Positions 12,699 through 62,133 of a stretch of 64,000 nucleotides of DNA are shown here, piece after piece. How positions within the stretch are numbered: position 1 is the first letter of the stretch; each line of letters starts with the position of its first letter. The notes under the pieces were generated by a model that did no database searches, had not been told where the DNA came from, and was given only the letters and a program-made list of their open reading frames with translations. Made by a program: the position numbers and the translations under genes. The stretch is from Neelides folsomi (taxonomy: Eukaryota; Arthropoda; Collembola; Neelipleona; Neelidae), in assembly GCA_034687125.1 (NCBI GenBank), contig JAQGBZ010000021.1, positions 62,001 through 126,000 of the forward strand, given 5' to 3'.

Positions 12699-15600
12699 TT
12701 ATCTTCTTGGAGGGATCTGCGGTTGAGTGCGAGCAGGAATGGGAGGTGCGTGGGGAACCACACGAGCTGGAATAGGAGGAAGATCTTCCGAAGGAGAATC
12801 TTTCTTCCCAACTTGTCTTGGAGGAACTGGTGGTAAATTCCCGGGGAATGAAACTCTAAAATATTAATAAATCATTTGGGATTAAATTCATTCATTAATT
12901 ATTATTTTATTACATTAAAGAATTTAAGAAGAATTAATAATTTTATAATTAATTACTGAGTTGTTGTTGAAGGAGGTGTTTGAATTCTTGGAGGTGCTGG
13001 TGGTGGAGCGCCTTCAAAATTTATTGTTTCATTCCTTGGAGATTCCACAAGAGGTGACTGCTTAGGCGAAACTTTTGGTGTACTCTCCTATTAATGTTGT
13101 AATTTAGAATTACCAGTTACATTACTACTAAATTATCCTTCATAATACTTTAATTCAAATAAAGGCTTTAAATATAAAATTTTACATTCGAATAAATTTT
13201 TCTGTCTGGAACAGGTGAACGTGGAGGAGGAGGCCTCGAAGGCGGCGCTGGTCGTGCTGGAGATTTTCTCCCATCTACATTCCCCATGATGTTCAAATTC
13301 AGGCCATGATGATCTTCTATAAAAGAAAATAAAAAATTAATCTCAAATACTAAAACACATGGCTTTATAATTGCATACAAACTTATAGAAATATTCAAAA
13401 GTTATTTAGTCAAATACCTTTGTATCGAAAATCCATTTGACCAACATTATTATTTTCTCGTGGTGGCAGGAGAGGAATCGTATTGTTTGCACAAAGTGCC
13501 ATTTCCTTCTCAAGATGATTCTCCCATTCAGTCGTTTTCAATCGAATGTAAACAACATGATTGCCAATCTATTAAATAATAAATCGATTAATTAAGAATT
13601 ATTTCAATGCATTTTTTTAGTTTGCAGCTTGTTCAGGATTATTGTATATTTTGGAGGATAATCCTTTTTAAGAATAAACTCTTACTTGAATTGATCGAAG
13701 TTGAGAAGCAGCGAGGGCAGCGAGTCCATCACTAAAAGTGATGTAAATTTCATTTTGGAGGTGTCGAACAAGCACGGCATTTCCACACCCAGCTAATTCA
13801 TTCAAAATATCTCCATCGGCGCATTCAGTGTGAAAAAAGTCTGGATCTTCGGTGTGGAGGATTACTGTAGCATCAGGAGGTCCAAATTGTCTTACGACAT
13901 CTTCAAAGATTCGATCTCTTTTCTCTTGAAGAACTTCCAATACTTCTGTCTCGATTATAGCAACCACTGGCCGATGGTCGCTTTGCTTTAACTCTGCTCT
14001 CCCATAATGCAAACATTGGCCAGAGTTCCAATCAGGAGGAATTTCTATTAAACACGAATTGTCTCAAATAAAAATCTAACACTTACACGTATTTGTTATT
14101 TTATTAATTATTATTATTATAAATATAATTGTCTTTATGGTAAAAACTTAATTATCAGTCAATATAAAAAGTGGAATGACACATAAATAGTACATAATAG
14201 TATATTAGATCTTTGACAATTACCCAATTCCGAAAAAGGCATTCTTCTCTTCCAAAGAATCCTATCTGTATAAGCAGGAATCCGAAGCTTTTCGCTCGTA
14301 TCGTAGTCTTCAGAGAAGAGATCGTATTTATACGTGGGAGGGAAATTGATGGGCCCTTCCGTGTACCCTTGAAACACGTTCCCGCTCTTCTTTTCTACTG
14401 ACAATTGATCCTTCTGAAGAAGATAAGGCCAATCTTGTCTACTGACCATTTCCACAACTTCGGCTCGATCCATATCAATACGATAATTGAAATCTCCACA
14501 CCAAAAGATGTGATCGTGAGAATCCAAAGTTCGACCCTATGATTTTACCAATTTTTTTATAAAGGGAAAATTGCTAACTTAATAAAATATATGGTATAAG
14601 TGGGATTGAGTTTACCATCGGGAATAAAATTTTCCTTGTTATTTCTGCAAAATCTTCATCTCTCTCTTTGATTTGATGTTGCCCAGCCGCAAAATGAGAG
14701 CAAACGAAACAGAGAGACGAACTGTATAGAACGAACCGAATCACCGTCGCACCTTTGTTTCCTATAAGTAATCCAAATGACACATTTTTAATTGGTTCTT
14801 TAGATTTACTCGCTAAATAAATTAAATATTACCAGTTGCTCCACCCAATCCAGTTTTAACCGAATCGGTTGCTACATCCTTGATAAAAGGTAGAAGCGAA
14901 GGGCGAACGAAAACATAAAGACAAACTCCCACAAGTTGCAAGGAAGTTAAAAGAACATATTGATGATCTCGATTGAGAATCTTTTCCAATTCTTCTGCCC
15001 ATGCTTTCTTATTTTCAGAACTATTAATTAAATTAAACATTAAACGTTTTGATTAACCTTAAAAGATTTAACTTAATTTTGAAATATTTAAAATGTTACC
15101 TTGCAGCGACAATATTTCCAGCATTAAGATCAACAATTTCTTGAAATCCAACAGCGAAAATATCAGATTTTATTTCCAACTCTTCTTCATCGTGGATTGA
15201 AACTAAGGCTGAAATAGTTAAATAGGAAATTTAATGCATTGTCAAACCATAAACATTTAACCATATAAACTATTAAAACTTACATGAAGATTTTGTCATT
15301 TTCGAGCCATCCAGAAGCCAGTCGGACAATGAGAGATCTTTGTATACAACAGATCTAAAATGTTTTCCTCCATTTACATTGTAAGTTCCAACAGTGACAA
15401 CAATGGGTCTTGGGTTTGTGTATTCTTCCCATCTTTTCACCATTGCTCTCAGAACGATTGGAGGAGCTAGAAAATAATTAAAATCTTAAAATTCCTTTAA
15501 AAACTTTCATTTTTTATAGAGGGATTTAATTATTTAAATATTAATTGGATAGTTTAAACATGATTAGTTAGATTATTAAAGTACCATGAAGGTAATGAGG

Positions 15601-22711: not shown

Positions 22712-24291
22712 ATGGAACCCACAAGTGGAGAAAGCGGAGATGGCTTTCTCACCAAAAAGGAAAGTTCACATTCATTAAGAACACCAACTTTGCCAAACCC
22801 TCCTAATTGTAATTACTTAATTATTATTTATTAAATAGATTTATAGTAGGTGGGTAATAACATTTATATTTCATTTAATAAAATCGTTGTTATTTTATTT
22901 AATCGATAATATAATCAATGAATTGATCAATTAAATCGGTATCAATTTTTATTATTTCAAAGGTTCTTGCCGAGATCATTCGAATTCCCATCACCATCAC
23001 GCACTGGAAGGAAATCCTTTACTCGGCCCTGAAGAGCTTGACTCGGCCCTTCCCAACCGAAAACTCATCGTTCAAGTAACGACATGGAACATGGGCTCAC
23101 TTCCCCTCCCTAAAGAGTTCCATCTTAGGAAATTGTTTTTCCACGATGAGCCCGCACTTCCCCCCATTGACCTCCACATTGTAGCCATTCAAGAATGTTG
23201 GCCGGAGACGGAAGCAGTTGAGTTGGAACTCCAACTCTGTCTCGGATCAACCTTCGTTCTCTTCACCTCCTCAACATTTGGGACGCTCCATGAATCCATA
23301 TTTATTAGAAGGGATTTGGTGTGGTTCACGGGAGAACCGAGCGAATCGACAATTTCAGTCAGATCTGGACGACTTTTTAAGACCAAGGGAGCTACTGTGA
23401 TTTCATTCTCCTTTTTTGGGACAAAATTCTCTTTTGTGACGGCTCATCTTTCTGCTGGAGCGGCAGGAGATCGGGAAAGGACGAGGATTGAAGAATTGAA
23501 AAAAATCATTGGGAGTGTACGGACGCCCAATGATGTTTTGTTCTTAGGGGGAGATCTCAATTTCCGAATTTCATATCTGAAGAGAGATTCAATCATTTCT
23601 AAACTCAAATCCACCGAGCTTCCAACCATTTTAGAAAAAGATGAACTTAATCAGATTTTTAGCAGAAAGGAAAATTTTCATAAATTTTTAGATGGATTTT
23701 ATGAAGCTGCAGCGATTACGTTCAAGTAATTAAAGATTATAATTAACTGAACAAGTTTCAATACTATTGTAATGATTTATTATTCGTATACTGTAAAAGT
23801 TTAAAGAATTTAATTTTGTGAATAGACCAACATACAAATATGATCTCGGAACGGATTCATTTGACACTTCGAATAAAAAGAGATCTCCAGCATATACGGA
23901 TCGAATCATGTACAAAAGCAAAAAAGATGGAATTGGACGGGATCCTGTTGTTTGCTTAGCATATGATTCAATTCAAAATATGAGAGTTTCTGATCATCGG
24001 CCTGTTTATGCAGTTTTTTCTGTTGATATCAAACCTGGATGTGACACGTAAACGCTTTCGATCCAATGGCTATTTTATTTAAATCTCGGCTTAGGGCTGA
24101 GGATGTAAATTAACTATATTTTATTTTGAATTAACTATAATATTATATTTAAAATTATTTATTTTGATAGGATGGCAATGTCTGGTGGAAAGTATAAAAG
24201 GGAATTGTATGTCAAAGCCGTTCAAAAACGAGCCAAATATTTGATGGAACGGAGGAAGAAACTCGCTTCTGCTGTTTGCCTGATTTCATAA
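22712..24291 (+). CDS. INPP5E: Inositol polyphosphate 5-phosphatase, INPP5E-like, with CaaX tail
   Basis: Removes the 5-phosphate of PI(3,4,5)P3 and PI(4,5)P2; in vertebrates INPP5E acts in the primary cilium. Exons 22712-22808, 22963-23725, 23826-24047 and 24171-24291 give 400 residues. Catalytic blocks seen are TTWNMGS, FLGGDLNFRIS, SPAYTDRIM and VSDHRPVYA. The linker EELDSALPNRKL before the catalytic domain resembles INPP5E. The last four residues are CLIS, a CaaX prenylation box after a basic helix, as in INPP5E. The N-terminus (about 65 residues) is much shorter than in the human protein, so a further upstream exon cannot be excluded. Arthropod cilia are limited mainly to sensory neurons and sperm, a likely site of action. 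Confidence 0.88.
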
Positions 24292-27760: not shown

Positions 27761-29538
27761 ATGTCGAAGAGAAAGCATGAAGAGCCGGTGAGTAATTTAT
27801 AAATTAATTTAAATGAGCATTTAAATAACGAACAGTATTTAGATCTTTTGTATTCTTTTCTCTTTATAAAGTTAATCTCCGTTGATGAGGAATATGTGTG
27901 GAAGATCGACGATTTCCAAAAGAAGATCGAGTTGCTTAATGATTCCCGTAAAGGTGGTGAGGACACTCTTCATTCCTTCCCCTTTCTTATGGGCATTGAC
28001 GTCAAGAAACCATCCGAGTGGTGAGTGTTTAATAAATTTAATTATAGTTTAACTAACTAATTTAAACATTAAATATTAATTTTAAATAAAAATATTAATG
28101 TAAATTTAATTATTTTATATGATTCCATGGGTTAAATTAAAAGTTATTGTAACAATGTTATGAATTAATTAGGGAATTGGAATTTGGATTAACGCGTGAT
28201 GGCGGATCAAATGAGAAACACGTCAGTTTGAGTCTCAAGCTCCTCAATAACTACTCAAAGAAGCCCGAATCAAGCGTTCTTCAGACAATTTACAATCTCG
28301 TTCGTGGAGACGCTCCAGTCATCAAAGTTGCACCAAAATTCACGATCATCTCATCAATTAAAAAACATTTGACCCGTGGTCCTCCTGCCATGTACTCTGA
28401 ATACTTCATCTCGGATAAAATAAAGGATAATGCTTCTTTTGGCTACATGAAGTTCATGCCATTGAAAGATCTTTGGAATTGGAAGAATGAATTTTGGTCA
28501 AATGACGTTCTCGAAATTCGGCTCAATTCCAAGATTTTCGGTGACGAAGTGGTGAAGAATTTCAAGAAGGTTCCAAGAGTGTTCAAGGAATTGGTTGTAG
28601 ATGTTCCCATCGATCTTTTGCATCTTTTGGAATCCGGGGTGGAATCGGACTTTACAATTAAACTCGGCGAGGACCAATTTCCCGTCCATAAGGCAATTCT
28701 CATCACTCGGGCTCCATTCTTTGCTGAGCTTTTTACGCCAGGGGTTGCGGCCGATTTTGGAAAAGCTGTTGGAAAGAGGAATGATAAAACATTTGAAGTG
28801 ACGGGTCGAGATCTGACTCCGGTGACGATGAAGCGAGTCCTCGAGTTCATTTACTCGGGTCAAGTTGTGTGCGAAGAAATGGACATGGCATTTTTCAAAG
28901 ACATGGTTCTTGGTGCTGAGGCATTTGGACTCGAAAAGCTCAAACATTCATTGATGAATTTCAAATTGAAACAAGATTCTCTTAAGCTCCACGACTTCCC
29001 GGATATCTTCAACTTCATCATTCAGCACGGGCCGAATGGAGAAATCAATGACAAACTCTTGGCTTACGCAGCTACGTAATTTAATTAAATACACTCACAA
29101 TCAGCCTAATGATAACTACGCAAATTCATAAGTTATTTAATTTAATTTAAAAATATTAATTTTAATTAGTAGGAATCATGATAAATTATACATGTAATTT
29201 TCTATGAAATCTTGAGTAAATCTTAATTAAATGTTTTTTATGATTTTAGAAACCGGAAATACTTGACATTGTTACCCGGCTTCAAAGATGGGTTAAATGG
29301 CGGAATGATTTCTCTCTTCAGTGGACCTGACAATGCTTTGTTTAATGAGGGAGTTAGTCAATTGGCGTTTCCAGAATTTCAATCGGGAGCTTCAAATCAA
29401 TTGGTGGCCCCAAACGCACAATTGGAAGGTCTGGCAGCCAATATTGAACCAGAAGAAATTCCTGTCGAAATCCATCAAGCAATTGAACCTGATGGCAATT
29501 CGGAAAAACAAGAAAATCATTTCAGTAACCTAACCTAA
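27761..29538 (+). CDS. MATH-BTB domain protein (SPOP-like layout, divergent)
   Basis: Exons 27761-27787, 27872-28020, 28173-29075 and 29250-29538 give 455 residues. The start (MSKRKHEEP) is followed by a divergent MATH/TRAF-like region (about 10-170; YVWKIDDFQKK is the typical first strand). A BTB domain follows at about 205-310 (ESDFTIKLGEDQFPVHKAIL, then VLEFIYSGQV), then a helical C-terminal region and a ~90-residue acidic Gln/Asn tail. SPOP-type proteins recruit substrates to Cullin-3 ligases; here the substrate is unknown. The MATH part is weakly conserved, and arthropod and nematode genomes often carry expanded, rapidly evolving MATH-BTB sets, so one-to-one orthology is unlikely. Confidence 0.85.
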
Positions 29539-33500: not shown

Positions 33501-36500
33501 TGTGAAAGAAATTGTATGGAATATATCGAATACCTACATAAGCATACATGTTATGGGTAGTTTACGTATAGAGATTGAAAATTGGTTAAGTTTCATATGC
33601 TTAAAATTGACAGAGATCCCTAAAGGCCTAACTTTACAAATTACCTAATAATTTCCCATAAAGACTCCTTTGATGCATAAATAGTATAGGCTTAAACGTT
33701 AGAAGAATTGAAAAAGACTCAAGGGATAAAGGTGGGATTAAAGGTATAGTTTATGCCTTGGGTAGTGTCCATATTGTAAATATATTAAATGTTTCCAAAA
33801 GTGAGTCGAAGGGTCAATAAATCATGACATGGATGTATTTACATCGTAATAATGAATTAGGAGTAACCCATAAGCCACCCTTAATAACAGACCTAGCGAC
33901 TCTCCACGTCCTTAAAAAAAGACCCTTGAGAGGAATTCTTAAATTAACTTAAAATCCTTCTTTCCACCTGCCAAAGTTTCATTTAAAGCTCCTTCGATAG
34001 GAGAAATATCGAAAGAGTTAAATGGGAAGTTCAAGTGGTTTGCCCATTTAAAGTTCTAATGCAGGATTTTGTCTCCGTTAGATCAACATGTAATTTATCC
34101 CTATGTGTTTTCTCCTCATTTACTTAGAAACCTTTGAGCAAACAAAGTTCAATAATGATTGAAAGCCCTTTACATGTACTGAAATACAAAACCATATTAA
34201 GTACGACATGATGTTTAACTACGATGTTTAATTTAAACTTGTTTTGCTTCAGAAGAATCACAAACTCCCAATTGAGTCAAAATGAGTTTAAGCCATAAAA
34301 GACTTTAAAACCAAATGGTAGCATTTCCACTTTATTACTTGTTAGGACATTTAGGACATTTTATTTTAATATACGTAAGAGGTTTGAAGAGATTAAAACT
34401 CATTAAGGAAGTTCATTAAGATAAAGATGAATCAAGCCGGTTCTTGTACATTTATAAAAAATATTCAGTTTTTCTCTCATGTGTTTAAGATATGAAGAAT
34501 TGAGTCAAGTTGAGAGGAAGTTGAACAAGGAAAGTGTTCATAAGATCTGAAAGGGTAAATAAACATTCAGTTGGTTTTTGTATCTCTCGCATCCGAAGAT
34601 AGCCTTTTGGGGTTAAAGAATCGTCATTTAAATACAAGAAATTGAGTGAAAGAATCCTTTTGAGTATTATATATTATTTATCTTGTAGAGATTTGCGGTT
34701 CAACCGGATCCGGAACATCCCGCCTGACAGCTTCATTCATTTAACAAATCTCAACACTCTGTGAGTTCTACACAAAAGTTTTTAACCTCGTTAATTAAAC
34801 AATTTGGAAATGTAATCTTTACAAATTAAATATAAATAAATCAAATTATTGTAGGTAATATTGTAAATACCAATGCAATACGCAATGCAAATTAAGCGGA
34901 AAGACTTAAATAAAATTTTCAATAAATAGGCTCTTGAATAACAACCACATCACTCGGCTAGAAAATGGAGCTTTCAACGGCCTTTCCGACCTCAAATATC
35001 TGTAAGGATTCATTTTAATGATCTCTTCTCACCCGTCAACTCTTCTTTCAGATACTTGTACAAAAACCGAATCCGGGAGATTGAGCCAAAAGTCTTTCGA
35101 GGTCTTCCGCAACTCGAACAATTGTAAACATCATTTATCATCCTCCTCCTTTCCACCATAGATTCATTTACCAATTCCTCGTTTTCTATAAAACACCACA
35201 ATATTACTTTTTTAATATAATTTCATATGCCAAATTAATAGATTAATATTGATATATTTATTATCTGCTAAAATAATAAACTATAAACCTTTAATTAATT
35301 TAGTGAAATATTAATGGAATATGACTTGTGTAATTTTGTATGACTTAATTCTATTGATGATTGATAAATGACCAATTAATTTCCCTGTTTATCAGATACA
35401 TCCATTACAACTTCCTTCAAGAGATTCAAGCCGAGACGTTTTCCAACTTGACCAAGCTGGAACGTCTTTTCTTGCACAACAACAAGATCCAGCGGATTCC
35501 CTATGGATCCTTCAACAATCTCCTGCAGATGAAGCGACTGTGAGCTCATTAAGCTCCTTTCATCTCCCTCGGTCCTTGTCTTGGTTTAACCCTGTGGAAT
35601 GTTCTTTTGTAGACGGCTGGACTCGAATGCTCTTGTATGTGACTGCGGGATGTTGGGGTTGGCCCAAATGCTGACGGATCATCCTGACACTCAAGCGGCC
35701 GCCACGTGTCAGCAGCCTGCGTCCATGCAAGGAAAACCCATCACAGCCCTCCAGGAGATGAACCTTCACTGCCGTATGAAATTAAGAAATTTCATTTAAA
35801 TAAAATATTAAAATTATAAATTGAATAGAACTTTTTTGGGTTTGTTTTGTTATATTGTATGTAAATACACATGTCGTAATTTCTTAAAAGTTTAGTTTAA
35901 TTAAATTTTTAGGGAAGCCAACCATCACCGAAGAACCAAGAGATGTTGAAGTGAATTTTGGGAACACTGTGTATTTCAGCTGTAAAGCAGAAGGAGATCC
36001 AACACCAAACATTGTTTGGCTTCATAATAGGTCGTTTAATATACTTAATTAACATTTTATTCATAATTAAATTCAGCTTTAAGTAACAGATACAATGTTG
36101 TTCTAATGCATTTATATTTGCAATGCTTTGTACAGGGCGAATCAAAAGTTGCTTTCTATTTTATATGGTTGTCTAATATTAATTTTAAGTAAAAAGAAAG
36201 GAATTTTTGACGCACCCTGTAACAAATTCTTAATTTTTCAGTATAAATTCAAAAGTTATAATTCAATGATGGGGATATTCAATAGTAATGAAATCAGCAC
36301 TAATGGTGAACCACGTTATTCCATCTTACACGATGGAACTCTGATGATCGCCAATGCTCAAGATGAAGATGCCGGAGCATATGAATGCATGGCCAAATCT
36401 CCGGTTGGAGAAGCCAAAAGTCGAAGTGCAAAAATGAACTACAAACGACAAACTCCTCCGAGTAAAATGCGTCCCCGTTTTCTTCAAGCTCCTGTTGACA

Positions 36501-39500
36501 CGGACGTTTCCGAGTCAGAATCCTTCAATTTATTATGTGAAGCGAGCGGAAATCCCAAGCCCCAATTGTTTTGGTCTTTCAATGACGCTCCGCTTCAGTT
36601 CAGTTCAAGACATCAGGTTCGAAATACCTTTTAACCTTTTTCCATCTCCCACTTACCTTAAATCCATTTAATCACTCAGTTTTCTTATCCTTGCCTTAAA
36701 TGACTTTCCATTTTACATAAAATTTAAGATTATCGGATTAACCAGAGACAACCATAATGGTTCAATAAGGGAAAATGGTAATGTTTGTTAGATAAGTGCG
36801 TCTGGAACGTTGTCGGTGAAGAACGCCATAAAGAAAGACGAAGGGGTTTACAGATGCACGGCAGTGAACAGTGTGGCCAAAATATCCGCCGTTGCTGAAG
36901 TCCGAGTTCAAAGTGAGTGTCTTTTTCCTCTTATCTTTATGAAGGTAAAAAATATTCATCTGCACCTCTTACCTGCTTTATGACCATCATAAAATGTGGA
37001 TTTGCTTTACAATCCCTACGAAGCTCCTTCATAGTGTAAATTCTGAATGCAAATGCAATAATGCATCAAAAAGGCTATATTGCTATATATAATGAAAATG
37101 AAAGGCTTCTTATAAGTAATTCAAAACATCGTAAATGATTAATGCAAGTTTTAATTCCATGTTAAAGCATTAATAAAATTCTAATGAATCATTTTAATTT
37201 CCTTATACTCAATTAAACATTTTTTGTAATAGTCGTTATTTTTAATAATATTTTATTTTATATATTCACTTTGATAATAATATTTAGATTTAAGACTTCC
37301 TGGTAGGTATCATTTTTCGCTTTTTGTAGAATTTGATTAAAAGTTTAAAGGTTCAGCAATCAAAATTTTATTTTAATTTTGTTTTAAAGGTGCTCCTCTT
37401 TGGGTCGTGACTCCATTGGACCAAACACTCCGATTCGGAGAAACCCTTGAGCTTAAATGTGAAGCGAGTGGTCGACCGAATCCAACACTCACGTGGAGTA
37501 AAGATAATTCACCCCTCTCGCCCTCACCTCGAATCTCCATAACTCACAAAGGTAAAAAAGTAAATTGAACATTCTTCATTTCTCATTATTTTCTTTCTTT
37601 TTTACGACCTTCTTTTTACTATTTCCACTACAAAACCCATACAAACTCATAAAATCTAATAAAAAGAAGGGTCTTATTCTTTATGTTAGAAGTGCTTAAA
37701 TAATATCTGGAAACTCAGGATATATACCAAGTGAAGAATGAGTGTCCGGACAAGTAAAATTAGTATCGTGGGTTAAATAGACAATTCCGGTTTTGGCAGG
37801 GCGTTTGTTGAAGATTTCCTCAGTGCGGGCTGATGAAGACGGAGGGGAGTATGGCTGCAAGGCGGAAAACACTGCAGGGTCCCTACAGATTTTTGCCAAC
37901 ATCAAAATTAGCCCTGGATCTCCGCCTTTGTTCACAAATGATCATTCATTCGAGTCATTCAAGTAATTATAATTAAAATATAACCAATTTGCATACTTTT
38001 TATTCAAACCAAAAAAAGATAGACTTAACTATTTATTTTATAGATATTTAATTTATAATTTAAAAATTATAAAATAATTTATTTAGTGTAATTCCCGGTC
38101 GTGAGCTTCAACTTCCATGTGCGGCCTCAGGTATTCCCCCACCCACGATCCTCTGGAAAAGAAACGGAATTACTTTAATTGAAAATTCTCGAATGAGCAT
38201 TTTGCCCAGGGGGACTTTACTCCTTAATCCTTATTTACCTGATCGGGACGGAGGGCTTTATGAATGTTCTGCTTACAATGACCATGGATTCATCACTGAC
38301 GAAGGAATCAAAGTTGAAGGGCGGACGGGGCGGAGATTGAGGAAGAAAAATGAAGATGTTGATGACTCACTCATCCTCCATGCTGTCACACAAGCGAGGA
38401 AAGATGTCCAAGTTGCAGAAAATGATACGCTCGAACTGCTTTTTGGAAAAGATGCAAAGAAAGGTCAATTTCAATAATAACACTTTTTTTAATATTCAAA
38501 CTCTACATATCGGATGATATTGTCTTTTAATAACTTTATGACGTCGATCATTTTAAACCTTTGACCTCCATCATTCAAGAATCATAATGTTTTTGTTTAC
38601 TGAATGGAATATTTATAAACTGCTTTAGAAAAAAGAAAGCAGTTAAAGGGGTTTTTATTGATACAAAGTTATTTATGAATATATTTTTATGATTTCAATA
38701 GACTTTTTCTAGGAAGTGGTTTTAATGTCTAACTGTTATTTTAGAATTCAAATCTCCCATTGATTTATTGCGACTCGCGAGATTTCCGAGGAAAGAAGGA
38801 CGAAACATCGCGAGGGCGGCTGAAATCTACGAAAGAGCTCTTAAAATTATTGGGAAACATGTTGAAGATGGAATGAACTTTACTGCATCTGGTATAAATA
38901 AATTGTTTAATATATCAGAAACTTATAACACATTAAAGTACAAACTATCACATTTTTAGTAAAATATTTAGATCCATATTTATAATTATGGTGCAATGAT
39001 TAAATGGGGTTATTAAATAGGAGATTTTTCATATAACGAGCTTCTAAGTCAGAATCAACTTGAAACTCTTGGACGGTTTTCCGGTTGTTTGCCTCACAAG
39101 AAACGCCGGTCGAATTGCAGTGAAGAAATGTGCTTTCATACCAAATACAGATCAATCGACGGCTCTTGCAATAATTTAGGAGAAACAACATGGGGAAATG
39201 CTTACACGGCATTTCAGCGTCTTTTGCCTTCAGCATACGAAAACGGATTTAATCTTCCAATTGGTAACAAAAATGAAACTTTGTTTATAAATACTACACT
39301 ATACCTTATACTATAATATATACGATAGTATGGGTATAGAGTCTTCCAAGTTAAGAATTGAAATTAAAAATGATCATTTAACAGGTTGGGATCCAAATAA
39401 ATTCTACAATGGTTTTACAAAACCAAGTGCACGTCTCATTTCGAATCGGATTATTAATACTGAATCTGTTAGTCCTGACACTGCCTATACACACATGTTA

Positions 39501-41728
39501 ATGCAATGGGGTCAATTTGTTGACCACGATCTCGACCATACTTTACCTTCTCTTTCTATTGAATCTTTTGGAGAACGCGTCAATTGCAAAAGGTACACTA
39601 ACAAAACAATTTCCAGTTAATTAACAATTTACGTTATGTTTAGATAAGATTAATTAAATTAAATCGATTTTACTTTTATTTTCCAGTACTTGCAAAAATG
39701 TTGCTCCATGTTTTCCTATCCCAGCCCCAGAAGGTGATTTTCGCATTAGGACGCGAAAATGTATTGAGTTTACGAGAAGTGCTGCAGTTTGTGGTTCAGG
39801 AATGACTTCCATTCTCTTCGACACAATCCAACAAAGAGAACAAATTAATCAACTCACTTCTTTTATTGACGCCTCTCAGGTATATTCAAATATTTTTTGA
39901 TTTTGGATCTATGTACATATATGATGAAATATTATTTAATTTAATTTAATAAATATAAGGTATATGGCTCCTCATCCGAAGAACTCTTAGAGCTGCGAAG
40001 CAAAAGTGATAAAGCTCTTCTTCGTCACGGGATTTATCAATTTGACAAACCACTGATGCCATTTGCCACTGACAACAATCCAATTGACTGTAGAAGAAAT
40101 ACACGTGAATCCGGAGTTGGATGTTTCTTAGGCGGAGATGTTCGTGCCAACGAGCAACTTGGTCTCCTGGCCATGCACACTATTTGGTTCCGACAACACA
40201 ACTTCATAGCTTTGAAAATCCGCGCCGTGAATCCACGCTGGGATGAGGAAACGGTATTCCAAGAAACGCGTAAAATAGTCGGAGCACAAATGCAGATTAT
40301 CACTTACAACCAATGGCTTCCAAACGTCATCGGAGCTAAAGGAATGGAAATCCTTGGGAAGTACGAAGGTTACAAACCTCATGTGAATCCAACGATCACA
40401 ACTGAATTTGCCACGGCGGCTTTGAGATTTGGTCATACTTTGATTAATCCGCTGCTTCGGAGATTGGATCCGGATTTTAAATCTATCAGAGAGGGAGATT
40501 TGCCATTGAGGAATTCTTTTTTCGCTCCTTGGCGTCTTTTGGAAGAAGGTGGAATTGATCCTTTGCTCCGGGGACTTTTTGCCTCTCCTGCCAAATTAAG
40601 GACACCGAGCGAACTTTTAAATTCCCATTTAACAAATGATCTTTTCACGGCTGCTCATGCTGTAGCTTTGGATCTCGCTGCAATGAATATCCAAAGAGGA
40701 CGAGATCATGGGATTCCTTCTTATAATGAATATAGAGTCTTTTGCAATCTCACAAGGGCGACTTCATTCGATGATTTAAAAGTTAGTTGCTAAAATTTAA
40801 TATAAAAAAATCTGACAATCTACTAAGGTATTAAGATAATTATAATATTAATGTTTATTAAATTAAATTAAATAAATTGAGGGAATGTAAATATAAAAAT
40901 AATAGGACGAGATTCATGATGCTGAACTTCGAGGAAAACTTCAAGATGTTTATAAGCATGTCGACAATATTGATTTGTGGGTTGGAGGAGTTGCGGAAGA
41001 TCCGCAATGGGATGATCAGCGTTTAGGTCCAACCTTTGCTTGTATTCTTATTGATCAATTTAGAAGACTACGAGATGGAGACAGGTAATTTAATTAAGAC
41101 AAGATGTAATGTACATAATGCACTATGTAATTACCTATAATTATTAGTATCTTTAAGATATTTAGATTTTATTATGGTATTAAACTAACATTAAGATATT
41201 TAGATTTTATTATGGTATTAAACTAACATTAAGATATTTAAATTTTAATAATTTTGATTTATTTCTAGATTCTGGTATGAAAATCCATCAGTTTTCAAAC
41301 CAGAGCAATTGGTTGCATTGAAAGAAACGTCTTTAGCAAAAGTTCTCTGCGACAACGGGGATTCATTGGAACATGTAAAGCTTGACGTGTTCGGCATGGA
41401 TTCTCCATTGGTTCGTTGCGATCTCGTTCCGGAAGTTCATTTTGGTCTTTGGGCCACTGAATGCTGTGGAACTTCCACCACGTGCCCTTCAAGTTCAACT
41501 CAAGATCTTGAGAATAATCAAATCAGAGTGAAGAGAAGCCTCGAAGATCCGCCGACGCTTGATATTCAAAAAATCGAAGAAAAATTGACCCTTGTCGCTT
41601 CAGCCGTTACGGCTTTAAAAAATAGAATCAAAGCATTGGAACAATCCTGTGACCATTCAAGTCACGATAATGAATCTCATTTCGCATTCAATTCTTCAGT
41701 CAGTTTTACTCCCAACGATCTTATATGA
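30568..41728 (+). CDS. Pxn: Peroxidasin (LRR, four Ig, haem peroxidase), lacking the VWC domain
   Basis: A secreted haem peroxidase that makes hypobromous acid for sulfilimine cross-links in collagen IV. The 19 exons are 30568-30779, 34689-34760, 34930-35001, 35052-35123, 35396-35539, 35613-35773, 35913-36030, 36286-36616, 36792-36912, 37390-37551, 37800-37962, 38087-38463, 38745-38891, 39021-39263, 39385-39592, 39687-39879, 39960-40781, 40906-41084 and 41269-41728: 1418 residues. Order: signal peptide, LRRNT, five or so LRRs, LRRCT (to ~245), four Ig domains (~248-640), then peroxidase. The calcium/distal motif [13 protein letters not shown], the GHT proximal-His block (~1091) and NIQRGRDHG are intact. 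A convertase site RVKR precedes a short coiled coil, where the protein ends. Vertebrate and fly relatives continue into a VWC domain. Confidence 0.95.
30780..34688 (+). other. Peroxidasin intron 1, 3.9 kb
   Basis: The longest intron in the window by far. It separates the signal peptide/LRRNT exon from the first 72-nt LRR exon. It contains only weak ORFs, for example 31903-32157, with no domain. First introns of this size often hold enhancers, but I see no specific motif. No transposon ends were recognised in it. Confidence 0.6.
36133..36219. mobile_element. 87-bp MITE in peroxidasin intron 7
   Basis: The left end CAGGGCGAATCAAAAGTTGC and the right end GGAATTTTTGACGCACCCTG are inverted, imperfect copies, flanked by TA at 36131-36132 and 36220-36221. 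This is a mariner-type MITE whose arms have diverged more than those of the 18386 copy. It lies inside the intron 36031-36285 and does not touch the splice sites. Confidence 0.8.
41155..41245. repeat. 38-bp tandem repeat in the last peroxidasin intron
   Basis: A unit beginning AAGATATTTAGATTTTATTA recurs at 41155, 41193 and 41231, a period of 38 bp with about 2.3 copies. The first two copies look identical, so the duplication is recent. It lies in the intron 41085-41268. Confidence 0.85.
41525..41536 (+). other. Proprotein convertase site RVKR in peroxidasin
   Basis: The codons read Arg-Val-Lys-Arg followed by Ser-Leu-Glu. Human peroxidasin is known to be cleaved after RGRR at the equivalent place, also followed by SLE. 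The match in position and following residues suggests conserved processing. Confidence 0.7.
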
Positions 41729-43682: not shown

Positions 43683-45584
43683 ATGGGTTTATTAAAATTA
43701 CTTCCATTTTTATCTATTTTAACTATACCTGTTTTTGCATGCTCAGAAATGGAGTTTCAAGTTCTTGAATTAGAAACAATCGAAAACGTTCCAACACCAG
43801 GTAAATTATTATAATTGGATTTATTAATTGTCACATTAAATCAATAGTATTTACAGCTATTGTTGTTGGTTCTCCGTTTTATTCAATTTTATTTTTGTCA
43901 CATTGTCATTACATAGGGATCTACCAAGATCCGAATATTTTCATCACAATCAGTTCGGTGGCTGGGATTGGGCCTAATAACACTTGGCTGGATAGAATGA
44001 TTGAATTAAATTGGAACAATTATGTTTCTTGGGCCGATGGTGATTGGGTTGGTTTATTCAACATTGACCCTTCATCTCTTCCATCTGACCATTCGTCATT
44101 TGCTCTCGTCACTGTTCCTGTAAATGGGAGCAGGGGATATGCCAAGACAAATGTAAAATATGAGCGGTTCGACTACACTGAAGAAACACCAGAATGTCTT
44201 GGATTTTATATAGGATATTTCCATTCGGATGAGCTCGTTGGTTCAAAATGTTTTTCTTTGTTTCCAAAATGGATGCATGATACAAAAGTAAAACTAATGA
44301 AAAACTCCAAATAAAAAGTAAAGCCAAATTGGTGAAAAAATTTAAATTAAAATTTCATGTATTTATATAGGAAATAATAGGGGATGTTCCATTGACCAAA
44401 TTGATGATTCCTGGAAGTCATGATGCAGGGGCTTGGCGTCTTTATCAAGGAGCTTTATCTGAAAATATCTTAATCAGATATTCCGTCAAGTAAATTAATT
44501 AGATATAAACTTTTAATTTATTAAAAATAGTTTAAAAGTTGATTGAAGATTATTGAATCGTATTTTGTGCAGTCAGGAAGAATCCATTTTTCGTCAATTA
44601 ATGCATGGAATTCGATATTTGGACGTGAGAGTTGCGTGTTATCCAGGGACGGCTGAAATCTGGTGGGTCAATCACGGATCCACCATTTTTAGACCATTAA
44701 TTACACTCTTTGACGATATTAAAGAGTTTGTCAGAATTTCAAATGAAATTGTCTTTATGGACTTTCACGGATTTCCAGTTGGATTTGACACTTTGGACAC
44801 CCACGAAGAACTTTTAATTTTTGTCTTGGAACACATGGGGTAAAAACTATTACTTAAGTACTACAATATATAATTAGTATAAAAAATCAAAATATTAAAA
44901 AATCTAATAAATTCTGATAAAGACTACAAAAATTCTTATAAAATGTTTTTTTATAAAGGGATCTTCTATTGCTCAAATCAGACTCCTCAGATCCGACACC
45001 AAACGAAGTTTGGGAAGCTAAACGGCCTGTGATACTCACTTACGCAGAAGGGAGAATTTCTAGCAAATATGATTTCCTATGGCCCTATTTAACTCATGTG
45101 TGATATAAACTTAAGATTTAAGCTTTTTTAAGAATCCGAATCTTTTGAACAAATGGAATATTTAACTTTTATGATTTCTAGGCATGGGGGAATAAAAACC
45201 AAGTAGATGAACTCGAAGAATATTTCAATATAACAATTCCAGCAATGGGCTGCAATGGAAGATGGTGGTCAGCCATGGTGGAATTAACAGGAAACAATAC
45301 GGATCCAATTCTTAGACCTTTGGTCGGACTCAGAGGATTTGCCCAAATGGTCAACATTCCACTCACTTATTGGTAAATTCTTTCGCACGCACAATTTACC
45401 TATACAATATTTGAGATAAAAGGAATAATATTTATTAAAATAAATTTATTTAATCAGGTACGAGAGGAGTGATTGGTATTCGTACAGCAATATTATTTCA
45501 ACCGACTACGTTTTGGGAAACAACATTGTGGAAATGTCGATAAAAGCCAATGTGAAAAGAGCAGTTTGCAATCAAAGTTATTGA
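43683..45584 (+). CDS. Secreted PI-PLC X-domain protein (PLCXD-like)
   Basis: Exons 43683-43800, 43917-44287, 44371-44489, 44573-44839, 44959-45097, 45182-45372 and 45458-45584 give 443 residues. The first ~20 residues are a signal peptide ending at VFACS. Exon 2 encodes a ~120-residue beta-rich domain (SWADGDWVGLFN, GFYIGYFHSDELVGSKCF) that resembles SKICH/C2-type beta sandwiches. The PI-PLC X barrel follows: IPGSHDAGAW with the first catalytic His, YLDVRVA, VNHGS with the second, and IVFMDFHGF. The Y domain, EF hands and C2 of eukaryotic PLC isoforms are absent, as is normal for PLCXD proteins. Substrate is not established; the signal peptide implies an extracellular or lumenal role. Confidence 0.88.
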
Positions 45585-54706: not shown

Positions 54707-57623
54707 CTAAGTTTTATGTAGAATTGTTGTTCCATAGCCAGGATTGATTCTATTGGATTGAAGAACTTGGTTGCACCAATCTTGTTGGAACAGATTTTGA
54801 TTCTGTTCCTGGTCCTGGTTCACTTTAATCACTGTGTAATTCGGCACCAATTCCCCATTAACCATTTTCTTCCCATATTCAACCACCATGGTTCCCCGAG
54901 ATCCCTCAGACTTCTCACGATAGCAATCCAACTCGGATTTCTCTTCCCCTGGTGCTGAATTGTAAGAAGAAAGTTTGGCCCAATCGTCAGCTTGTTTTTG
55001 ACACAAAGCATCAACTTGCAATCCTCCCACGATCCTTCCTTTATTGCAAAAAGATGAATTTGCACATTCGTCCGTTGCAGTGTAGCCGCAGCGTTTGCTT
55101 GTGTCTGGTCCGCGTCTCGAGTACATGTTAACATTCTTGGAATTGTCCTTGCATGAAGAATTCCTCACAGCGTTTTCAATGGTCATTGGATCAAACATGC
55201 TTTTTCGACAAGCTGCAAAACTTGCGTCTTCTAAAGCCTGGCAAACTCCTTGTTGGGCGTCCTACTCAATTTAAAATTATTTAATTAAAAAATTAAATAA
55301 ATATTAAAATAAAAAATCTTTATTATGATAGACCACGTAAATATAATAACCATTATCGACTCGTACCGATCTAATAAAATTAATTGTAAATTAGATATTA
55401 CAAAATAATAATTAATTATTTCACCTGGAACTTTTCCTTGCAGAGATCATTTGGAGTTCCACAATCCGTATTGAGTCGATTTGGATCCCGAATATTGTTA
55501 TTATCATAACTGTCATCATAAGGGCGTTCTTGCCAGCAATTGTCATTGTTCATTTCTGCACTCGACCGATTGTTCACTCGTCCAACTCCACACGTCCGAC
55601 TTGGAACTGGCGGCTGTCGTTGGCAATAATTTCCACAAGGATCGGCATATTGACCACAAGTTTCCTGGAAATCTCTTCTTATTGGGAACGGGCAAGTGTT
55701 TGATTGTAAAATGTTCTTTTCCCAATCATTGAAATCCTTTGAGCAAACTCGTCTTGGCAAATTTTTGGAGCAAGATTTCTGTGCTCTTGGTTGAGTTTCC
55801 TCTTCATTGCAACGCATTCCTCCAGAGCAATCGTTGTTCATCGCGCAATTCATGTTGTTATTCTGAGATGAATAATTGTCGTTGCAATTTCCATTGTTGC
55901 TCCGAGAAGAATAATTGTCATCGCAGTTATCATTATTCTGAGAATTCTTGTTGCAATTTCCATTATTATTGCTCTGAGATGAATAATTATTGTAGTAATT
56001 CCCATCATTGTTCTGATTGTTGTTGTCGCAATTTTGGAAAGTTTGACGCTTTTGATCATTTGAAAGACAAATTCGGCATTGTTCGGCGTTTTCTCCATAC
56101 ATTGGATTACAGCAATTGGCTCCTCCACTTTGGCTATTTCCTTGTTGTTGCCGATTGTTTTGGTTATCTGAGAGGCAAGCGAGACATTCCTTGTAATTGT
56201 CCTTTTGGTCATTGCAAGAATATTGGCCATTGTTGTTGCAGCTATTGTAATTATCAGTATTGCAATTGTTGTTGTTGTTTTCATTGCATCTTCCACTTTG
56301 ACCTTGCTGAGATTTATTAAAATTTGAATATTGTTGCAATTTATTATTTGCATTTTTATCCGAAAGACACAAGCGACATTCCTCAGCGTTTGTTCCATAC
56401 ATTTGGTGAGTGCAGCGATCCCCAGGTTTTCTTGGCCCTCCTGGTCTTTCACATCCAGGTTCGCAAATGTCATTATCTTGGAATTGACATCCAGAATCAA
56501 AATGATCAACCAAATTTTGGCGACATTGTTCTTGCATTTTCTTTTCCCTTCGTTTGCTGCTCGAGTTGCTGATTTGAGACGGAGATCGGCGAGAGAGTTG
56601 TCCACAGTTGTTATTTCGATTGCAATCTTGCCCATTTCTTTGTTGATTTGGAGGATCATCCGAAAGGCAAGTTTTGCACTGAGCGTAAGTTTCTGCTTGT
56701 TGACGAGCCATTTCGGACATTCCTGGATAAACGTTGCAAATATCTGCGCACATGTTTGTCTGGCAGTTTTGTTTTGACATGCTTTTGGCCAAATTTTGTC
56801 TTGATCGGCCGCTGTTGCACGGGCTGGGTCTTTGACTGTTGAAAGATCTTTGAGAATTTTGACCACAACGGTCGGATTGTTGAGAATGGAGGGAACGATT
56901 TGATTGAGAACCTCCACACTTTAGAAGACCCGATTGTGATTGGCCACTGTATTCCATTTGTCCACAGGGATTGCATGAGATCATTTGTCCAGGTACGCAT
57001 TCTTGCATGTAGGACATTTCACCAGGCTTAATTTGGTCAATTACCGGAAACTTCATTTTTCCTATAAAATTGAATTTTATATTTATTTAAAATGTCGTTG
57101 TATTTATTATTTATTTGTTAAATTATTTAATAAAAATCGTTAAGTATTAGATTTCCAAAAATGCTTCATTGTTTTACCAGGATTTCCAACAATGATAACT
57201 GAAGATGGTCTGTATTTATGAGGATTTCTAATTCTGTCAGTGCAATCACAGCCAAGAGATTCTTCCCAAATTGACCCTGGAAAATCCCCCCATGGAGAAG
57301 AACACTTGGAAGCAGGACAATTGTTCAAGAGATGTCCGCAATTATTTGCTATGTATTCAATCGGCCTTCGACAACAATTGGGAACATTGGGAGCTGCAAA
57401 ATAACCGGGATATCCATCATATACAACTCGCCAATTCTTCAACTTGCTTGGTTTAAAAGAATCGTTGTACTAAAAATACAAACATTAACCAAACTATTAA
57501 CCAAGCTTTTAAGCAACTTTTAAACATAATACGACATGATTTAAGAAATATATAAGCACTATTAAATGAAAATTTATCTAATTGAAAAAGACTTACTTGA
57601 CTTGCATTATAATAGCTCGACAT
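54707..57623 (-). CDS. Unrecognised Cys/Asn/Gln-rich protein with four CxxCLSD repeats, 836 residues
   Basis: Exons 57597-57623, 57178-57469, 55425-57061 and 54707-55261 join in phase. The short N-terminal part has a Cys-rich block (NCCRRPIEYIANNCGHL). The large exon is dominated by Cys, Asn, Gln, Ser and Arg. It holds four copies of a motif [YN]xxCxxCLS[DN], with Cys at residues 235/238, 335/338, 399/402 and 435/438; the second and fourth are preceded by MYGxNAE. An Asn-rich tract lies at about 450-530. The C-terminal exon is more ordered, with regularly spaced Cys. There is no signal peptide or membrane helix, so it is probably intracellular. Cys-rich, low-complexity structural proteins are common in sperm and cuticle, but I recognise no family and claim no function. 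Divergent from ALG11. Confidence 0.8.
56040..56696 (-). repeat. Region holding the four CxxCLSD repeat units
   Basis: Within the large exon the units occupy about 56637-56696, 56337-56396, 56145-56204 and 56040-56099. Spacing between the Cys pairs is 100, 64 and 36 residues, filled with Asn/Gln-rich linkers. The units are conserved while the linkers are not. Confidence 0.8.
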
Positions 57624-58060: not shown

Positions 58061-60111
58061 ATGTTATTCATCCTACTAGTTTTACTTTTGTTCGCAATAA
58101 TTTCAATAGCGATATCATTAGTTTTCATATTCGTTGCTTCACTGTTTATGCGACAGGTTCGTTTAGTTAAATTAGATTTATTTCATTTATGATAATAAGC
58201 ATTTATTATAGCAGTTGAATCGCCATCAAATTCAATAATTAAAATTATTTTACAGGTGCTGAGGAAAAAGAGGAAGATTGAAAAGAGTTCAGATGATCGG
58301 CTCATTGTTGGTCTTTTTCATCCCTATTGTAATGCCGGTGGTGGTGGAGAACGTGTCCTCTGGTCAGCTGTCAAATATTTACAAATTCGGTAATAAGTTT
58401 TACTTTGCTGAAAGTTTCAAATTCTAACTAAAAATCAACTAAATAAACTTTAAAATAGTTTCTATTAAAAGTGTTTAAAATATTTAAATCAACGGTGTAA
58501 TATTTTGTTTTAGATATCCTGTGACCAAGTTTGTAATTTATACTGGAGATACGAATGCTTCTCCAGAAGAGATTTTATCCAATGCGAAGAAAAGGTTCAA
58601 TATTGAACTTTCGTCACCTGTCGAATTTGTTTACCTCCATAGAAGAAGATGGGTCGAAGGGGACAAATATCCCTATTTTACACTTTTAGCTCAAGCTGTT
58701 GGATCAATTTATCTTGGGCTAGAAGCCATTTTCAAAATTGTACCAGGTAATTTTAATAATCCCAGAAAGCAAATACAATTTATCATTATTTCGGATAATA
58801 AACCATTCAAACTTAAAGTAAATAACTTAAGTTTAGTTTTTAATGCATAATAGTTAACTATGCATATAGTGATATGATTATAACTTACATATTCTAATAT
58901 TTAGTATAACGTTGAGTTTATTCGAAACTGTAGTATTTTAATAAATATTTAATAATTAATTAATTTCTAGATATTTATATCGACACTATGGGCTATGGCT
59001 TTACACTTCCTTTATTCAAATGGGTCGGAGAATGCAAAGTTGGATGTTACGTCCATTACCCGACAATTTCCACTGACATGCTTCAAAGAGTGGCCAATCG
59101 AACCAGCAGCTACAATAATCGATCATCTGTGGCCCGAAGTCCCTTCCTTACATATTTGAAACTCAATTATTACAAGTTGTTTGCCAAGTTCTACAAGTTT
59201 GCCGGGAAGGCTGCTGACATTGTCATGGTCAATTCTTCTTGGACTGAGGAACACATGAAGGAATTATGGGAAATTCCTTCAAGGACATTTAAAGTTTACC
59301 CGCCCTGTGATGTAGAAGATTTAAAGAAAATTGAAATTAAGGAAATGGATGAAAACGCAGCTGAAATAAATCCGATTAGGATTATTTCATTAGCTCAGTT
59401 CCGTCCAGAAAAAGATCATCCCTTGCAGATTCGCACAATGTTCGCTCTGCGACAACTCCTCCCTGAAAAAGAATGGGACCGAACGAAATTGGTTTTAATT
59501 GGGAGTTGTCGAAACAAAGAGGATGAGGAGAGAGTGAAAGACATGAAGGACTTGGCCAAGCATTTGAGTGTGGAGGACAACGTGGAGTTTAAAATTAATA
59601 TTTCTTATGATGAACTCAAACAAGAATTTGCCAATGGACTTATTGGCATTCACACAATGTGGAATGAACATTTCGGAATTGGTGAGATACAATTTATTTA
59701 ATTATTACAATTGTACAAAAAAAGTAACAACAAATGATGAAGTCATCCAATTAAGCCTAATAGTTAAAATTTCTAGTTAACACTAATTAAATTATATATT
59801 TTTAAAATATTCGGTTATTAACTTTCTTTGGTATTCCAGGAATTGTTGAATGCATGGCTGCTGGTTTAATGATGGTTGCAAACCGCTCAGGTGGACCTTT
59901 AATGGACATTGTAATGGAATTCAATGGATCAAGAAATGGATTTTTAGCTACTGATGAACATGACTATGCTAACACTATTCAGAATATTATGTTAACCACG
60001 GAAAAATACCGGCAATTAATTCGGAATAATGCACGTTCTTCTGTAGATCGATTTTCTGAAAGGACTTTCTGTGTCAATCTCCTTGAAGCTACAGAATCTC
60101 TTTTTAACTAA
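58061..60111 (+). CDS. ALG11: GDP-Man:Man3GlcNAc2-PP-Dol alpha-1,2-mannosyltransferase
   Basis: Adds the fourth and fifth mannoses to the lipid-linked oligosaccharide on the cytosolic face of the ER. Exons 58061-58156, 58256-58389, 58514-58746, 58971-59681 and 59840-60111 give 481 residues (human protein 492). The first ~32 residues form the membrane anchor. [16 protein letters not shown] is the family glycine-rich block. [25 protein letters not shown] and [15 protein letters not shown] follow. The GT4 EX7E region reads [14 protein letters not shown] and is intact. The gene looks functional and single-copy. It is convergent with DUOXA. Confidence 0.96.
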
Positions 60112-60618: not shown

Positions 60619-62133
60619 TTAGGATTTTGGTTCGTTAACTTCTTCAGTGTTTTTTCCTAAGATTCCCCAACGCAAGTTATGTTCATGTGGAGCAAGAGGA
60701 TTTTCTTCTTTTAATGCAAGAGCAACTTCATCCGGTTGTTTATTGAGTCGATGGGCTAGGGCGATAGTTCGTTTATGCTCATAGTCAACGTCGAAAATTG
60801 TTAAGAACGCATCAGGGAACAAAATGTCGTAAACTGCAAAAAATGATCCATACATAAACTCCCAAGTTCCTAAACCCAAGCTCATCCAAAAACAAAGCCC
60901 GTATCTGAAATTAAACATTTTAAAATATAAAATAATTATTATACAGTCAACTTTACATTACAAACTTCAAAGTATGTAGTATTAAGTTAATTAAAAAATA
61001 ATTAAAATTGTTTTTATTTGGAATTGAACGAATATTTTGTCTAACCTCAATTCCAAAAATTTTCCTTCGATTGTAATGCACGGAAAGAAAAGCTCCATAT
61101 TTGCCCAATAAAAGTAAAGAAGCGTGGCCAAGAGCATCAGCGTCCCAACCACAATAAACCCATAGCTTGAATATCTCGGAATGAAAGCGATGAACAAAGT
61201 AGAAATGATCCAAACGACCAATGCGGCCGTGACCAACAAATAGACATGATATCCGGCTTCAACAATTTGATGAGACGATTCGAATCCAAGTTCAGCCGAT
61301 GCTAAAAAATTGATCGCTGACAAAATCGGTGTTGGAAGTCCGCGCCTTAATGCTTCATCTTCTACTCCAATTAAATTATTTGGATGGTAAAGATGGAGCA
61401 CTTCATTGTAATAGAAAGATCCATTGGATAAGAGTGAATTGGGATCCGCGTAAAGACGATCGTCTGGGAAAAGGTCGAGGTCCATTTTAAGAATAATTCT
61501 TGGATCCACGCTCCGAAGCGTTATGTTCGCCACGGAAAGCCCAATGTGAAGTCCAAGATGAAGATCGTAAACCTTTTAAAACAAAATCACCATTATTAAT
61601 TATAAATTATAAGTAAATAGAAATGTTATTTTTTAAAGATAATAACTTTCAATTAAATTAACAATTATAGGATAATTTACCTTATTGAAAGCCACTTGGG
61701 ACATTGGAGATTGGAACGTCACTCCGCCACGGAGCCATTCAGGTGAAGCCAAACATAGTGAAATGATCGCTCCGCTCATAATGCAATTCACGGCCTAATA
61801 ATAATTATTTATTTTTTTAAATTAATACGTAATTCATTATTATTCTATAACAGATTCCAATTTTTGATTGATTTGTTATATATTCATGTATATTGTATAA
61901 TATGGGTAAATATTTTTAATTATGGGGATTTTTATATAATAATAAAGAGTAAGTTTCACCGTAATTGCAGAATGAATTTTTTTCCGAATTATTGGAAGCA
62001 CAACGAAGAAAACAAAAAGACAAACGAGGGCGACCGAAATGATTCCCATAACTGACCGGGTAAGATAGAGCACCGGAGTCATCGTATTTTTCTCTCCATA
62101 ATAAGTTGGCCCTCCTGGCCCGAATCGGTGCAT
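60619..62133 (-). CDS. DUOXA: Dual oxidase maturation factor (DUOXA/NIP family)
   Basis: An ER membrane partner needed for folding and surface delivery of the H2O2-producing dual oxidase. Exons 61960-62133, 61681-61794, 61046-61572 and 60619-60904 give 366 residues. The N-terminal tyrosine/glycine-rich stretch GPGGPTYYGEKN is followed by helix 1 (about 27-50) and helix 2 (exon 2). The conserved HIGLSVANITLRS and an extracellular loop with NxS/T sites (NIT, NGS) follow. Then come RRGLPTPILSA and three more helices ending in WMSLGLGTWEF. The ~75-residue cytosolic tail is charged. Five helices overall, as in the family. In arthropods DUOX supplies peroxide for gut defence and cuticle cross-linking. 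Confidence 0.93.

What the first reader, a model, noticed from the sequence alone, without database searches (positions are those of the whole stretch)
54707..57623. A CxxCLSD-repeat, Asn/Cys-rich protein with no family I recognise
The 836-residue model has four well-conserved units [YN]xxCxxCLS[DN] separated by freely varying Asn/Gln/Cys linkers. The motif is kept while linkers drift, which suggests selection on paired cysteines (metal binding or disulfide/thiol cross-linking). There is no signal peptide, so it is not an obvious secreted matrix protein. A sperm or other terminally differentiated structural role is one guess. This is the best candidate in the window for something undescribed.
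Basis: partly seen in the sequence, partly recalled or inferred. Interest (0 to 1): 0.75.

Follow-up and report, generated by a model that had tools for sequence, protein, structure and literature searches.

The report
Flattop axoneme protein with cysteine-rich tail
The puzzling cysteine- and asparagine-rich protein begins with the docking domain of Flattop, a known protein of the microtubule doublets of cilia and sperm tails, and seems to carry a new, very long cysteine-rich tail that may stiffen or cross-link the sperm flagellum.

Summary
The gene model holds: four GT-AG exons on the minus strand join in frame to 836 residues with four C-x-x-C-L-S-[DN] units (0 of 20,000 shuffles had two). 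But the family is known. Residues 1-79 (exons 1-2) are a Flattop/CFAP126 domain: Pfam PF22611 at 38.8 bits (cut-off 27), PDB Flattop chains at E 8.6e-7 to 7.7e-5, and 43 bits against 9.2 for the best of 2,500 shuffles. Flattop chains in the PDB have 137-196 residues; this model adds 757 residues of Asn/Cys-rich sequence without a convincing match in the libraries tried. Splice scores favour one fused protein over two adjacent genes, and the Cys enrichment reaches into the Flattop head, where five solved heads have none. Published Flattop sits on the doublet ribbon inside the B-tubule. Best reading: a flagellar doublet protein, in an arthropod most likely of sperm, whose tail cross-links through thiols or zinc. 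Flattop membership is near certain, the fusion likely, the tail's chemistry inferred, species and tissue untested. New variant of a known kind.

The parts
57597..57623 (-). exon 1: MSSYYNASQ, first nine residues of the Flattop domain
   Evidence: ATG context AAAAATG; donor CAA|GTAAGT at the 97th percentile of 76 inferred introns of this window; adding it raises the whole-protein score against a Flattop HMM from 24.3 to 35.6 bits
57178..57469 (-). exon 2: rest of the Flattop/CFAP126 domain (residue 79 ends at 57260) and a linker; 7 cysteines
   Evidence: Pfam PF22611 E 1.8e-9, 38.8 bits, residues 1-75; PDB Flattop chains; the exon-2 ORF alone scores 30.1 bits; position of residue 79
57062..57177 (-). 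intron 2 (116 nt), which decides between one fused gene and two genes
   Evidence: GC 15.5%; donor at the 84th and acceptor at the 67th percentile of 76 inferred introns, whose median length is 122
55425..57061 (-). exon 3: Cys/Asn/Gln-rich tail with the four CxxCLS[DN] units
   Evidence: 545 codons without a stop, against 9 and 43 stops in the two shifted frames; 47 Cys in 546 residues; no Pfam family above cut-off; PDB best E 0.88
56658..56678 (-). unit 1, CKTCLSD, residues 235-241
56358..56378 (-). unit 2, CRLCLSD, residues 335-341
56166..56186 (-). unit 3, CLACLSD, residues 399-405
56058..56078 (-). unit 4, CRICLSN, residues 435-441
54707..55261 (-). exon 4: C-terminal 184 residues, less Asn-rich, 9 cysteines, and the stop
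   Evidence: ORF; Cys and Asn counts; no Pfam match above cut-off, PDB best E 3.9; single-sequence AlphaFold2 model unusable, mean pLDDT 39.1; intron 3 acceptor only at the 29th percentile

Best explanation
The gene codes for a Flattop (CFAP126/FAP126) protein with a lineage-specific extension of 757 residues. The head (residues 1-79) docks, as in other Flattops, on the A11-A13 ribbon of the doublet microtubule inside the B-tubule next to the inner junction. The tail, an Asn/Gln-rich spacer with Cys-rich nodes, extends from that anchor and cross-links neighbouring tails or other axonemal proteins through disulfides or zinc, stabilising a long-lived flagellum, in an arthropod most likely that of sperm. 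Shown here: head homology, the four units, Cys enrichment of head and tail. Supported but not proven: the splice that joins head and tail. Inferred: docking position (from published Flattop structures), sperm expression, the cross-linking.
For: PF22611 CFAP126 at 38.8 bits over residues 1-75, cut-off 27. PDB phmmer with residues 1-107: five distinct Flattop sequences at E 8.6e-7 to 7.7e-5, collinear from Met1, and one chance hit at E 2.3. A profile of this head with five PDB heads also finds the chain named FAP126 / Protein Flattop homolog (6u42, 6ve7; Chlamydomonas, recalled) at E 4.3e-9. Control: an HMM of the five PDB heads gives 43.0 bits to residues 1-110; best of 2,000 head shuffles 7.2, best of 500 full-length shuffles 9.2, best other ORF of the 1,901 six-frame ORFs of at least 20 codons 5.3. 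22 invariant columns among the six heads. Fusion: intron 2 donor and acceptor at the 84th and 67th percentile of 76 inferred introns; the fused model beats two genes by 16.8, 14.8 and 13.0 nats under three parameter sets of my choosing. Cys: 5 in residues 1-79 (P 0.007 against 48 Cys in 3,173 codons of 18 other ORF stretches of the window) where the five PDB heads have none in their first 69-70 residues. Docking: CFAP126 in mouse sperm is placed on the A11-A13 ribbon, extending into the B-tubule lumen (PMC10663601, passages); FAP126 lies on A13 and in the A12/A13 wedge (PMC6994238, passages).
Against: No transcript or protein data. Exon 3 has its own ATG (57056-57054) in an AAAA context, so two adjacent genes remain possible. 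The codon-usage signal is weak (per-codon log-odds for exons 1-4: -0.30, 0.09, 0.05, 0.19), and for exon 3 the true frame scores like shifted frame 1 (0.054 each), though that frame holds 9 stops. Intron 3's acceptor is middling to weak (29th percentile, 9.1% of AG sites as good). CxxC pairs are not over-represented. No relative of the tail was found, so its conservation is untested. Sperm expression and species are not shown.
Confidence: 0.6

Rival explanations
1. Two tightly spaced genes: a short Flattop of 118 residues (exons 1-2, reading on to the stop at 57142) and, 83 nt further, a separate Asn/Cys-rich gene that starts at the ATG of exon 3.
For: An in-frame stop after 12 read-through codons gives a Flattop not far below known chain lengths (137-196 aa); exon 3 has an ATG preceded by AAAA; intron 2 holds AATAAA strings (sequence).
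Against: Good donor and acceptor of matching phase; 83 nt would have to hold a poly-A site and a promoter; the 12 read-through codons do not look coding (-1.4 nats) and the model comparison favours fusion by 13.0-16.8 nats, with priors that I set; the Flattop head shares the Cys and Asn enrichment of the tail.
Confidence: 0.12
2. The tail is a set of zinc knuckles: the CxxCLS[DN] units bind metal, two units per zinc, and give the tail folded nodes with a binding or recruiting role rather than cross-links.
For: Extended motif kept four times while flanks differ; CRxCLS recalls the first CxxC of zinc-finger-associated domains (recalled, no call).
Against: No zinc-binding Pfam family was listed at E up to 10, though HMMER's filters drop most matches above about 0.1; each unit has only one CxxC; spacing between units varies (100, 64, 36 residues).
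Confidence: 0.25
3. The tail is a loosely constrained, low-complexity extension with no specific chemistry; only the Flattop head matters.
For: Asn/Gln-rich and poor in hydrophobic residues through most of exon 3; CxxC not enriched; published Flattops also vary beyond about residue 76 (PMC4221739, passages).
Against: 545 stop-free codons in exon 3; the 7-residue word recurs four times despite synonymous change in all six pairs; strong Cys enrichment (56 of 730, P 1.8e-22 against other window ORFs).
Confidence: 0.2

Closest known systems
Flattop / CFAP126 (Pfam PF22611), animal members with solved structures
   Same: N-terminal 70-79 residues, collinear from the first Met, with MxxxxxAxQY, LxN, IANxxGHL, PxSK and PWGxF kept in all six heads aligned
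   Different: head about nine residues longer in net (79 against 70), five cysteines where the five PDB heads have none, and 757 further residues of Cys/Asn-rich sequence instead of the short C-terminal half, which in mouse carries a proline-rich repeat (PMC4221739, passages)
FAP126 of Chlamydomonas (6u42, 6ve7; species recalled)
   Same: found by the joint head profile at E 4.3e-9; inner-junction-associated inner protein (PMC6994238, passages)
   Different: 137 residues, no such tail
Cys-rich sperm tail proteins such as mammalian ODF1 (recalled)
   Same: cysteine-rich flagellar structural protein, possible disulfide cross-linking
   Different: no sequence comparison was made; ODF1 has CGP repeats (recalled), whereas here the motif is CxxCLS[DN] behind a microtubule-inner-protein head

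Membership tests
Flattop / CFAP126 (PF22611) | Pfam model matched above its curated cut-off | tested here: met
   38.8 bits against 27, E 1.8e-9, model positions 1-67 of 184
Flattop / CFAP126 (PF22611) | conserved first ~76 residues, starting at the initiator Met | tested here: met
   alignment with five PDB heads, 22 invariant columns; shuffle and ORF controls; published statement that conservation is highest in the first 76 residues (PMC4221739, passage)
Flattop / CFAP126 (PF22611) | location on the doublet ribbon in the B-tubule | not testable with these tools
   published for other species only
vertebrate-type Flattop (sub-group; not a defining feature of the whole family) | C-terminal half with proline-rich repeat | tested here: not met
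   Pfam match stops at model position 67 of 184; residues 80-836 have 4.5% Pro and only two PP pairs. Chlamydomonas FAP126 also lacks the proline-rich regions (PMC6994238, passage), so this does not exclude the family
zinc-binding CxxC families (for example ZAD zinc fingers) | match to a known zinc-finger family | tested here: not met
   none listed in Pfam scans of the whole protein, exon 3 and exon 4 at E up to 10

The most novel reading that the evidence does not exclude
A microtubule inner protein turned into a covalent staple: in this lineage Flattop anchors, at every repeat of the doublet, a long oxidisable cysteine-rich tail that polymerises with its neighbours inside or across the B-tubule, giving the sperm axoneme a disulfide- or zinc-hardened internal scaffold.
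Probability: 0.2. Interest if true: 0.65.

Novelty: new variant of a known kind. Interest (0 to 1): 0.42.

Why it matters
The doublet inner-protein papers listed (25 of 69 shown) concern mainly algae, ciliates, other protists and mammals. A Flattop with a 757-residue Cys-rich extension would be a direct case of a conserved small inner protein extended by new sequence, probably in arthropod sperm, and offers a testable idea of how a flagellum could be hardened from within. It also turns an orphan-looking gene into one with a named anchor and a clear cell-biological address.

Tried and rejected
Orphan family: rejected by the Flattop match. Relatives elsewhere: head, Flattop profile and exon 3 against viral contigs and head and exon 4 against genome contigs gave pattern matches but none confirmed; these collections are viral, bacterial and archaeal, so this says little about animals. 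Host genome: not held, so neither paralogues nor the species could be examined; a springtail origin crossed my mind and I read passages on springtail sperm (PMC7140630), but nothing here tests it. Weak PDB matches of residues 104-205 to streptopain (E 0.019-0.057 with the full protein, 0.88 with exon 3 alone) and Pfam CBM_48 and transthyretin (below cut-off) were taken as chance in a biased sequence. Exon 4 recalled a C8-like cysteine pattern to me (recalled), but no such family was listed by Pfam. Structure of exon 4 alone: mean pLDDT 39.1, so no fold search was made. The self-trained gene finder mixed strands, so only 76 of its 129 introns, those in 11 blocks chosen by me, were used for splice scores. 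Self-comparison by blastp gave only the trivial diagonal; it missed even the similarity of units 2 and 4, so it is not sensitive enough to exclude further repeats. Papers: PMC8595878 and PMC10973386 hold none of the Flattop names that I looked for; searches on insect doublets and Cys-rich sperm proteins were seen as listings only and gave nothing used.

Full report
What was claimed.

The observation. The exons 57623-57597, 57469-57178, 57061-55425 and 55261-54707 on the minus strand join to 2511 nt in one frame, with GT-AG introns of 127, 116 and 163 nt. The product has 120 Asn (14.4%), 63 Cys (7.5%) and four C..CLS[DN] units at Cys 235, 335, 399 and 435. In 20,000 shuffles of the 730-residue tail, 62 had one unit and none had two or more. 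Plain CxxC is not enriched (5 seen, mean 4.2, P 0.41), so what stands out is the seven-residue word. Each of the six pairs of units has 2-3 synonymous differences in seven codons, so they are not recent copies. Units 2 and 4 share a longer repeat, MYGxNAExCRxCLS (7 of the 12 residues upstream of the core identical); units 1 and 3 have Tyr at -3. The consensus [YN]xxC is therefore right for two of four. Tandem Repeats Finder reports nothing inside the exons.

What it is. Pfam names the N-terminus: PF22611 CFAP126 (Flattop), E 1.8e-9, 38.8 bits, cut-off 27, residues 1-75. An earlier scan of ten window ORFs had missed it, because exon 2 was not among the ORFs given. With the whole protein, phmmer lists five Flattop sequences of the PDB at E 6.5e-5 to 0.0024; with residues 1-107 the same five come at E 8.6e-7 to 7.7e-5, followed by one chance hit at E 2.3. 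A profile of the six heads finds FAP126 (6u42, 6ve7) at E 4.3e-9; the next hits of that search are at E 0.078 and worse. An HMM made only of the five PDB heads gives 43.0 bits to residues 1-110, 35.6 to the whole protein, 24.3 without exon 1 and 30.1 to the raw exon-2 ORF; the best of 2,000 shuffled heads reaches 7.2, of 500 shuffled proteins 9.2, and the best other ORF among 1,901 six-frame ORFs of the window 5.3. The head is therefore Flattop, the exon 1-2 splice is backed by homology, and no second Flattop-like ORF was seen in the window.

Head and tail in one protein? Exon 2 could read on for 12 codons to a stop at 57142, and exon 3 has its own ATG 83 nt beyond. I tested this with splice models from 76 introns of other genes, inferred by a small gene finder and restricted to blocks I chose (the finder's 129 introns included some on the wrong strand). 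Donor and acceptor percentiles among these introns are 97 and 62 for intron 1, 84 and 67 for intron 2, 79 and 29 for intron 3. For intron 2 only 1.4% of GT and 1.1% of AG sites in the window score as well. A simple likelihood comparison favours fusion by 16.8, 14.8 and 13.0 nats for three parameter sets of my choosing. Against: codon usage hardly supports exons 1-3 (-0.30, 0.09, 0.05 nats per codon; exon 4 0.19), and shifted frame 1 of exon 3 scores like the true frame (0.054 each). The argument for exon 3 being coding is its 545 stop-free codons, against 9 and 43 stops in the shifted frames. The head shares the tail's bias: five Cys in residues 1-79 (P 0.007) and nine Asn (P 0.007) against 48 Cys and 138 Asn in 3,173 codons of 18 other ORF stretches, while the five PDB heads have no Cys in their first 69-70 residues. 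I put the fusion at about 0.88.

How it probably works. [quoted passage not shown] In Chlamydomonas FAP126 lies on A13 and in the A12/A13 wedge and appears to interact with FAP106/ENKUR (PMC6994238, passages). PMC10460401 (passages) lists it as a B-tubule protein found only in some organisms. [quoted passage not shown] The same split, conserved head and free remainder, is seen here, but the remainder is about four times as long as the whole mouse protein. With the head as anchor, the tail would run from the ribbon as a flexible spacer with cysteine nodes. Disulfide or zinc cross-linking in a long-lived sperm tail is my preferred reading, from composition alone; it is not shown. Most arthropods build motile axonemes only in sperm (recalled), which gives the likely tissue if the organism is an arthropod, which I could not test.

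What is known. Searches of the paper library for Flattop with Drosophila, sperm and axoneme, CFAP126 with insect, FAP126 with Drosophila and Flattop with arthropod listed 4, 2, 2 and 5 papers. I opened two of the five, both on aphids; they use the word for a gel apparatus. The others were seen in the listing only. So I found no description of an arthropod Flattop there, which covers open-licence PMC papers only and not the text of the papers left unopened. The tail has no match above cut-off in Pfam (exons 3 and 4; whole protein), none in NCBIfam (a prokaryote-oriented library), none better than E 0.88 (exon 3) and 3.9 (exon 4) in the PDB when searched alone, and no confirmed relative for exon 4 in genome contigs or exon 3 in viral contigs. 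None of these is rich in arthropod proteins, so tail-bearing relatives may well exist in unsearched genomes.

Verdict. A Flattop family member with an unusual Cys-rich extension: new variant of a known kind. My odds: membership about 0.95, fusion about 0.88, tail cross-linking about 0.4.

Noticed in passing
58061 to about 60111 (+): ALG11 mannosyltransferase gene (Pfam ALG11_N E 2.4e-42 on the ORF at 58964-59701) lies head-to-head with the Flattop gene; the ATG that I take as its start by eye is 438 nt from the Flattop start.
   Followed up: partly
about 35018-41728 (+): Peroxidasin-like gene: Ig domains and animal haem peroxidase (E 2.1e-95).
   Followed up: no
60994-61575 (-): Dual oxidase maturation factor (DuoxA, E 1.8e-18).
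   Followed up: no
13671-14063 (-), 22935-23726 (+), 43805-44314 (+): Two inositol-phosphatase-type genes in the window: a DUF1866 domain (E 4e-20) on one, Exo_endo_phos2 (E 1.8e-18) on the other. A SKICH match below cut-off (18.2 bits, cut-off 23.4) lies apart from both.
   Followed up: no
28153-29079 (+): MATH-BTB protein in one long ORF (BTB E 9.7e-13, MATH_2 below cut-off).
   Followed up: no
54707-55261 (-): The C-terminal 184 residues (exon 4) are much less Asn-rich than exon 3 (8.7% against 17.0%) and may form a separate folded domain; no match was found and the single-sequence model is unusable.
   Followed up: partly
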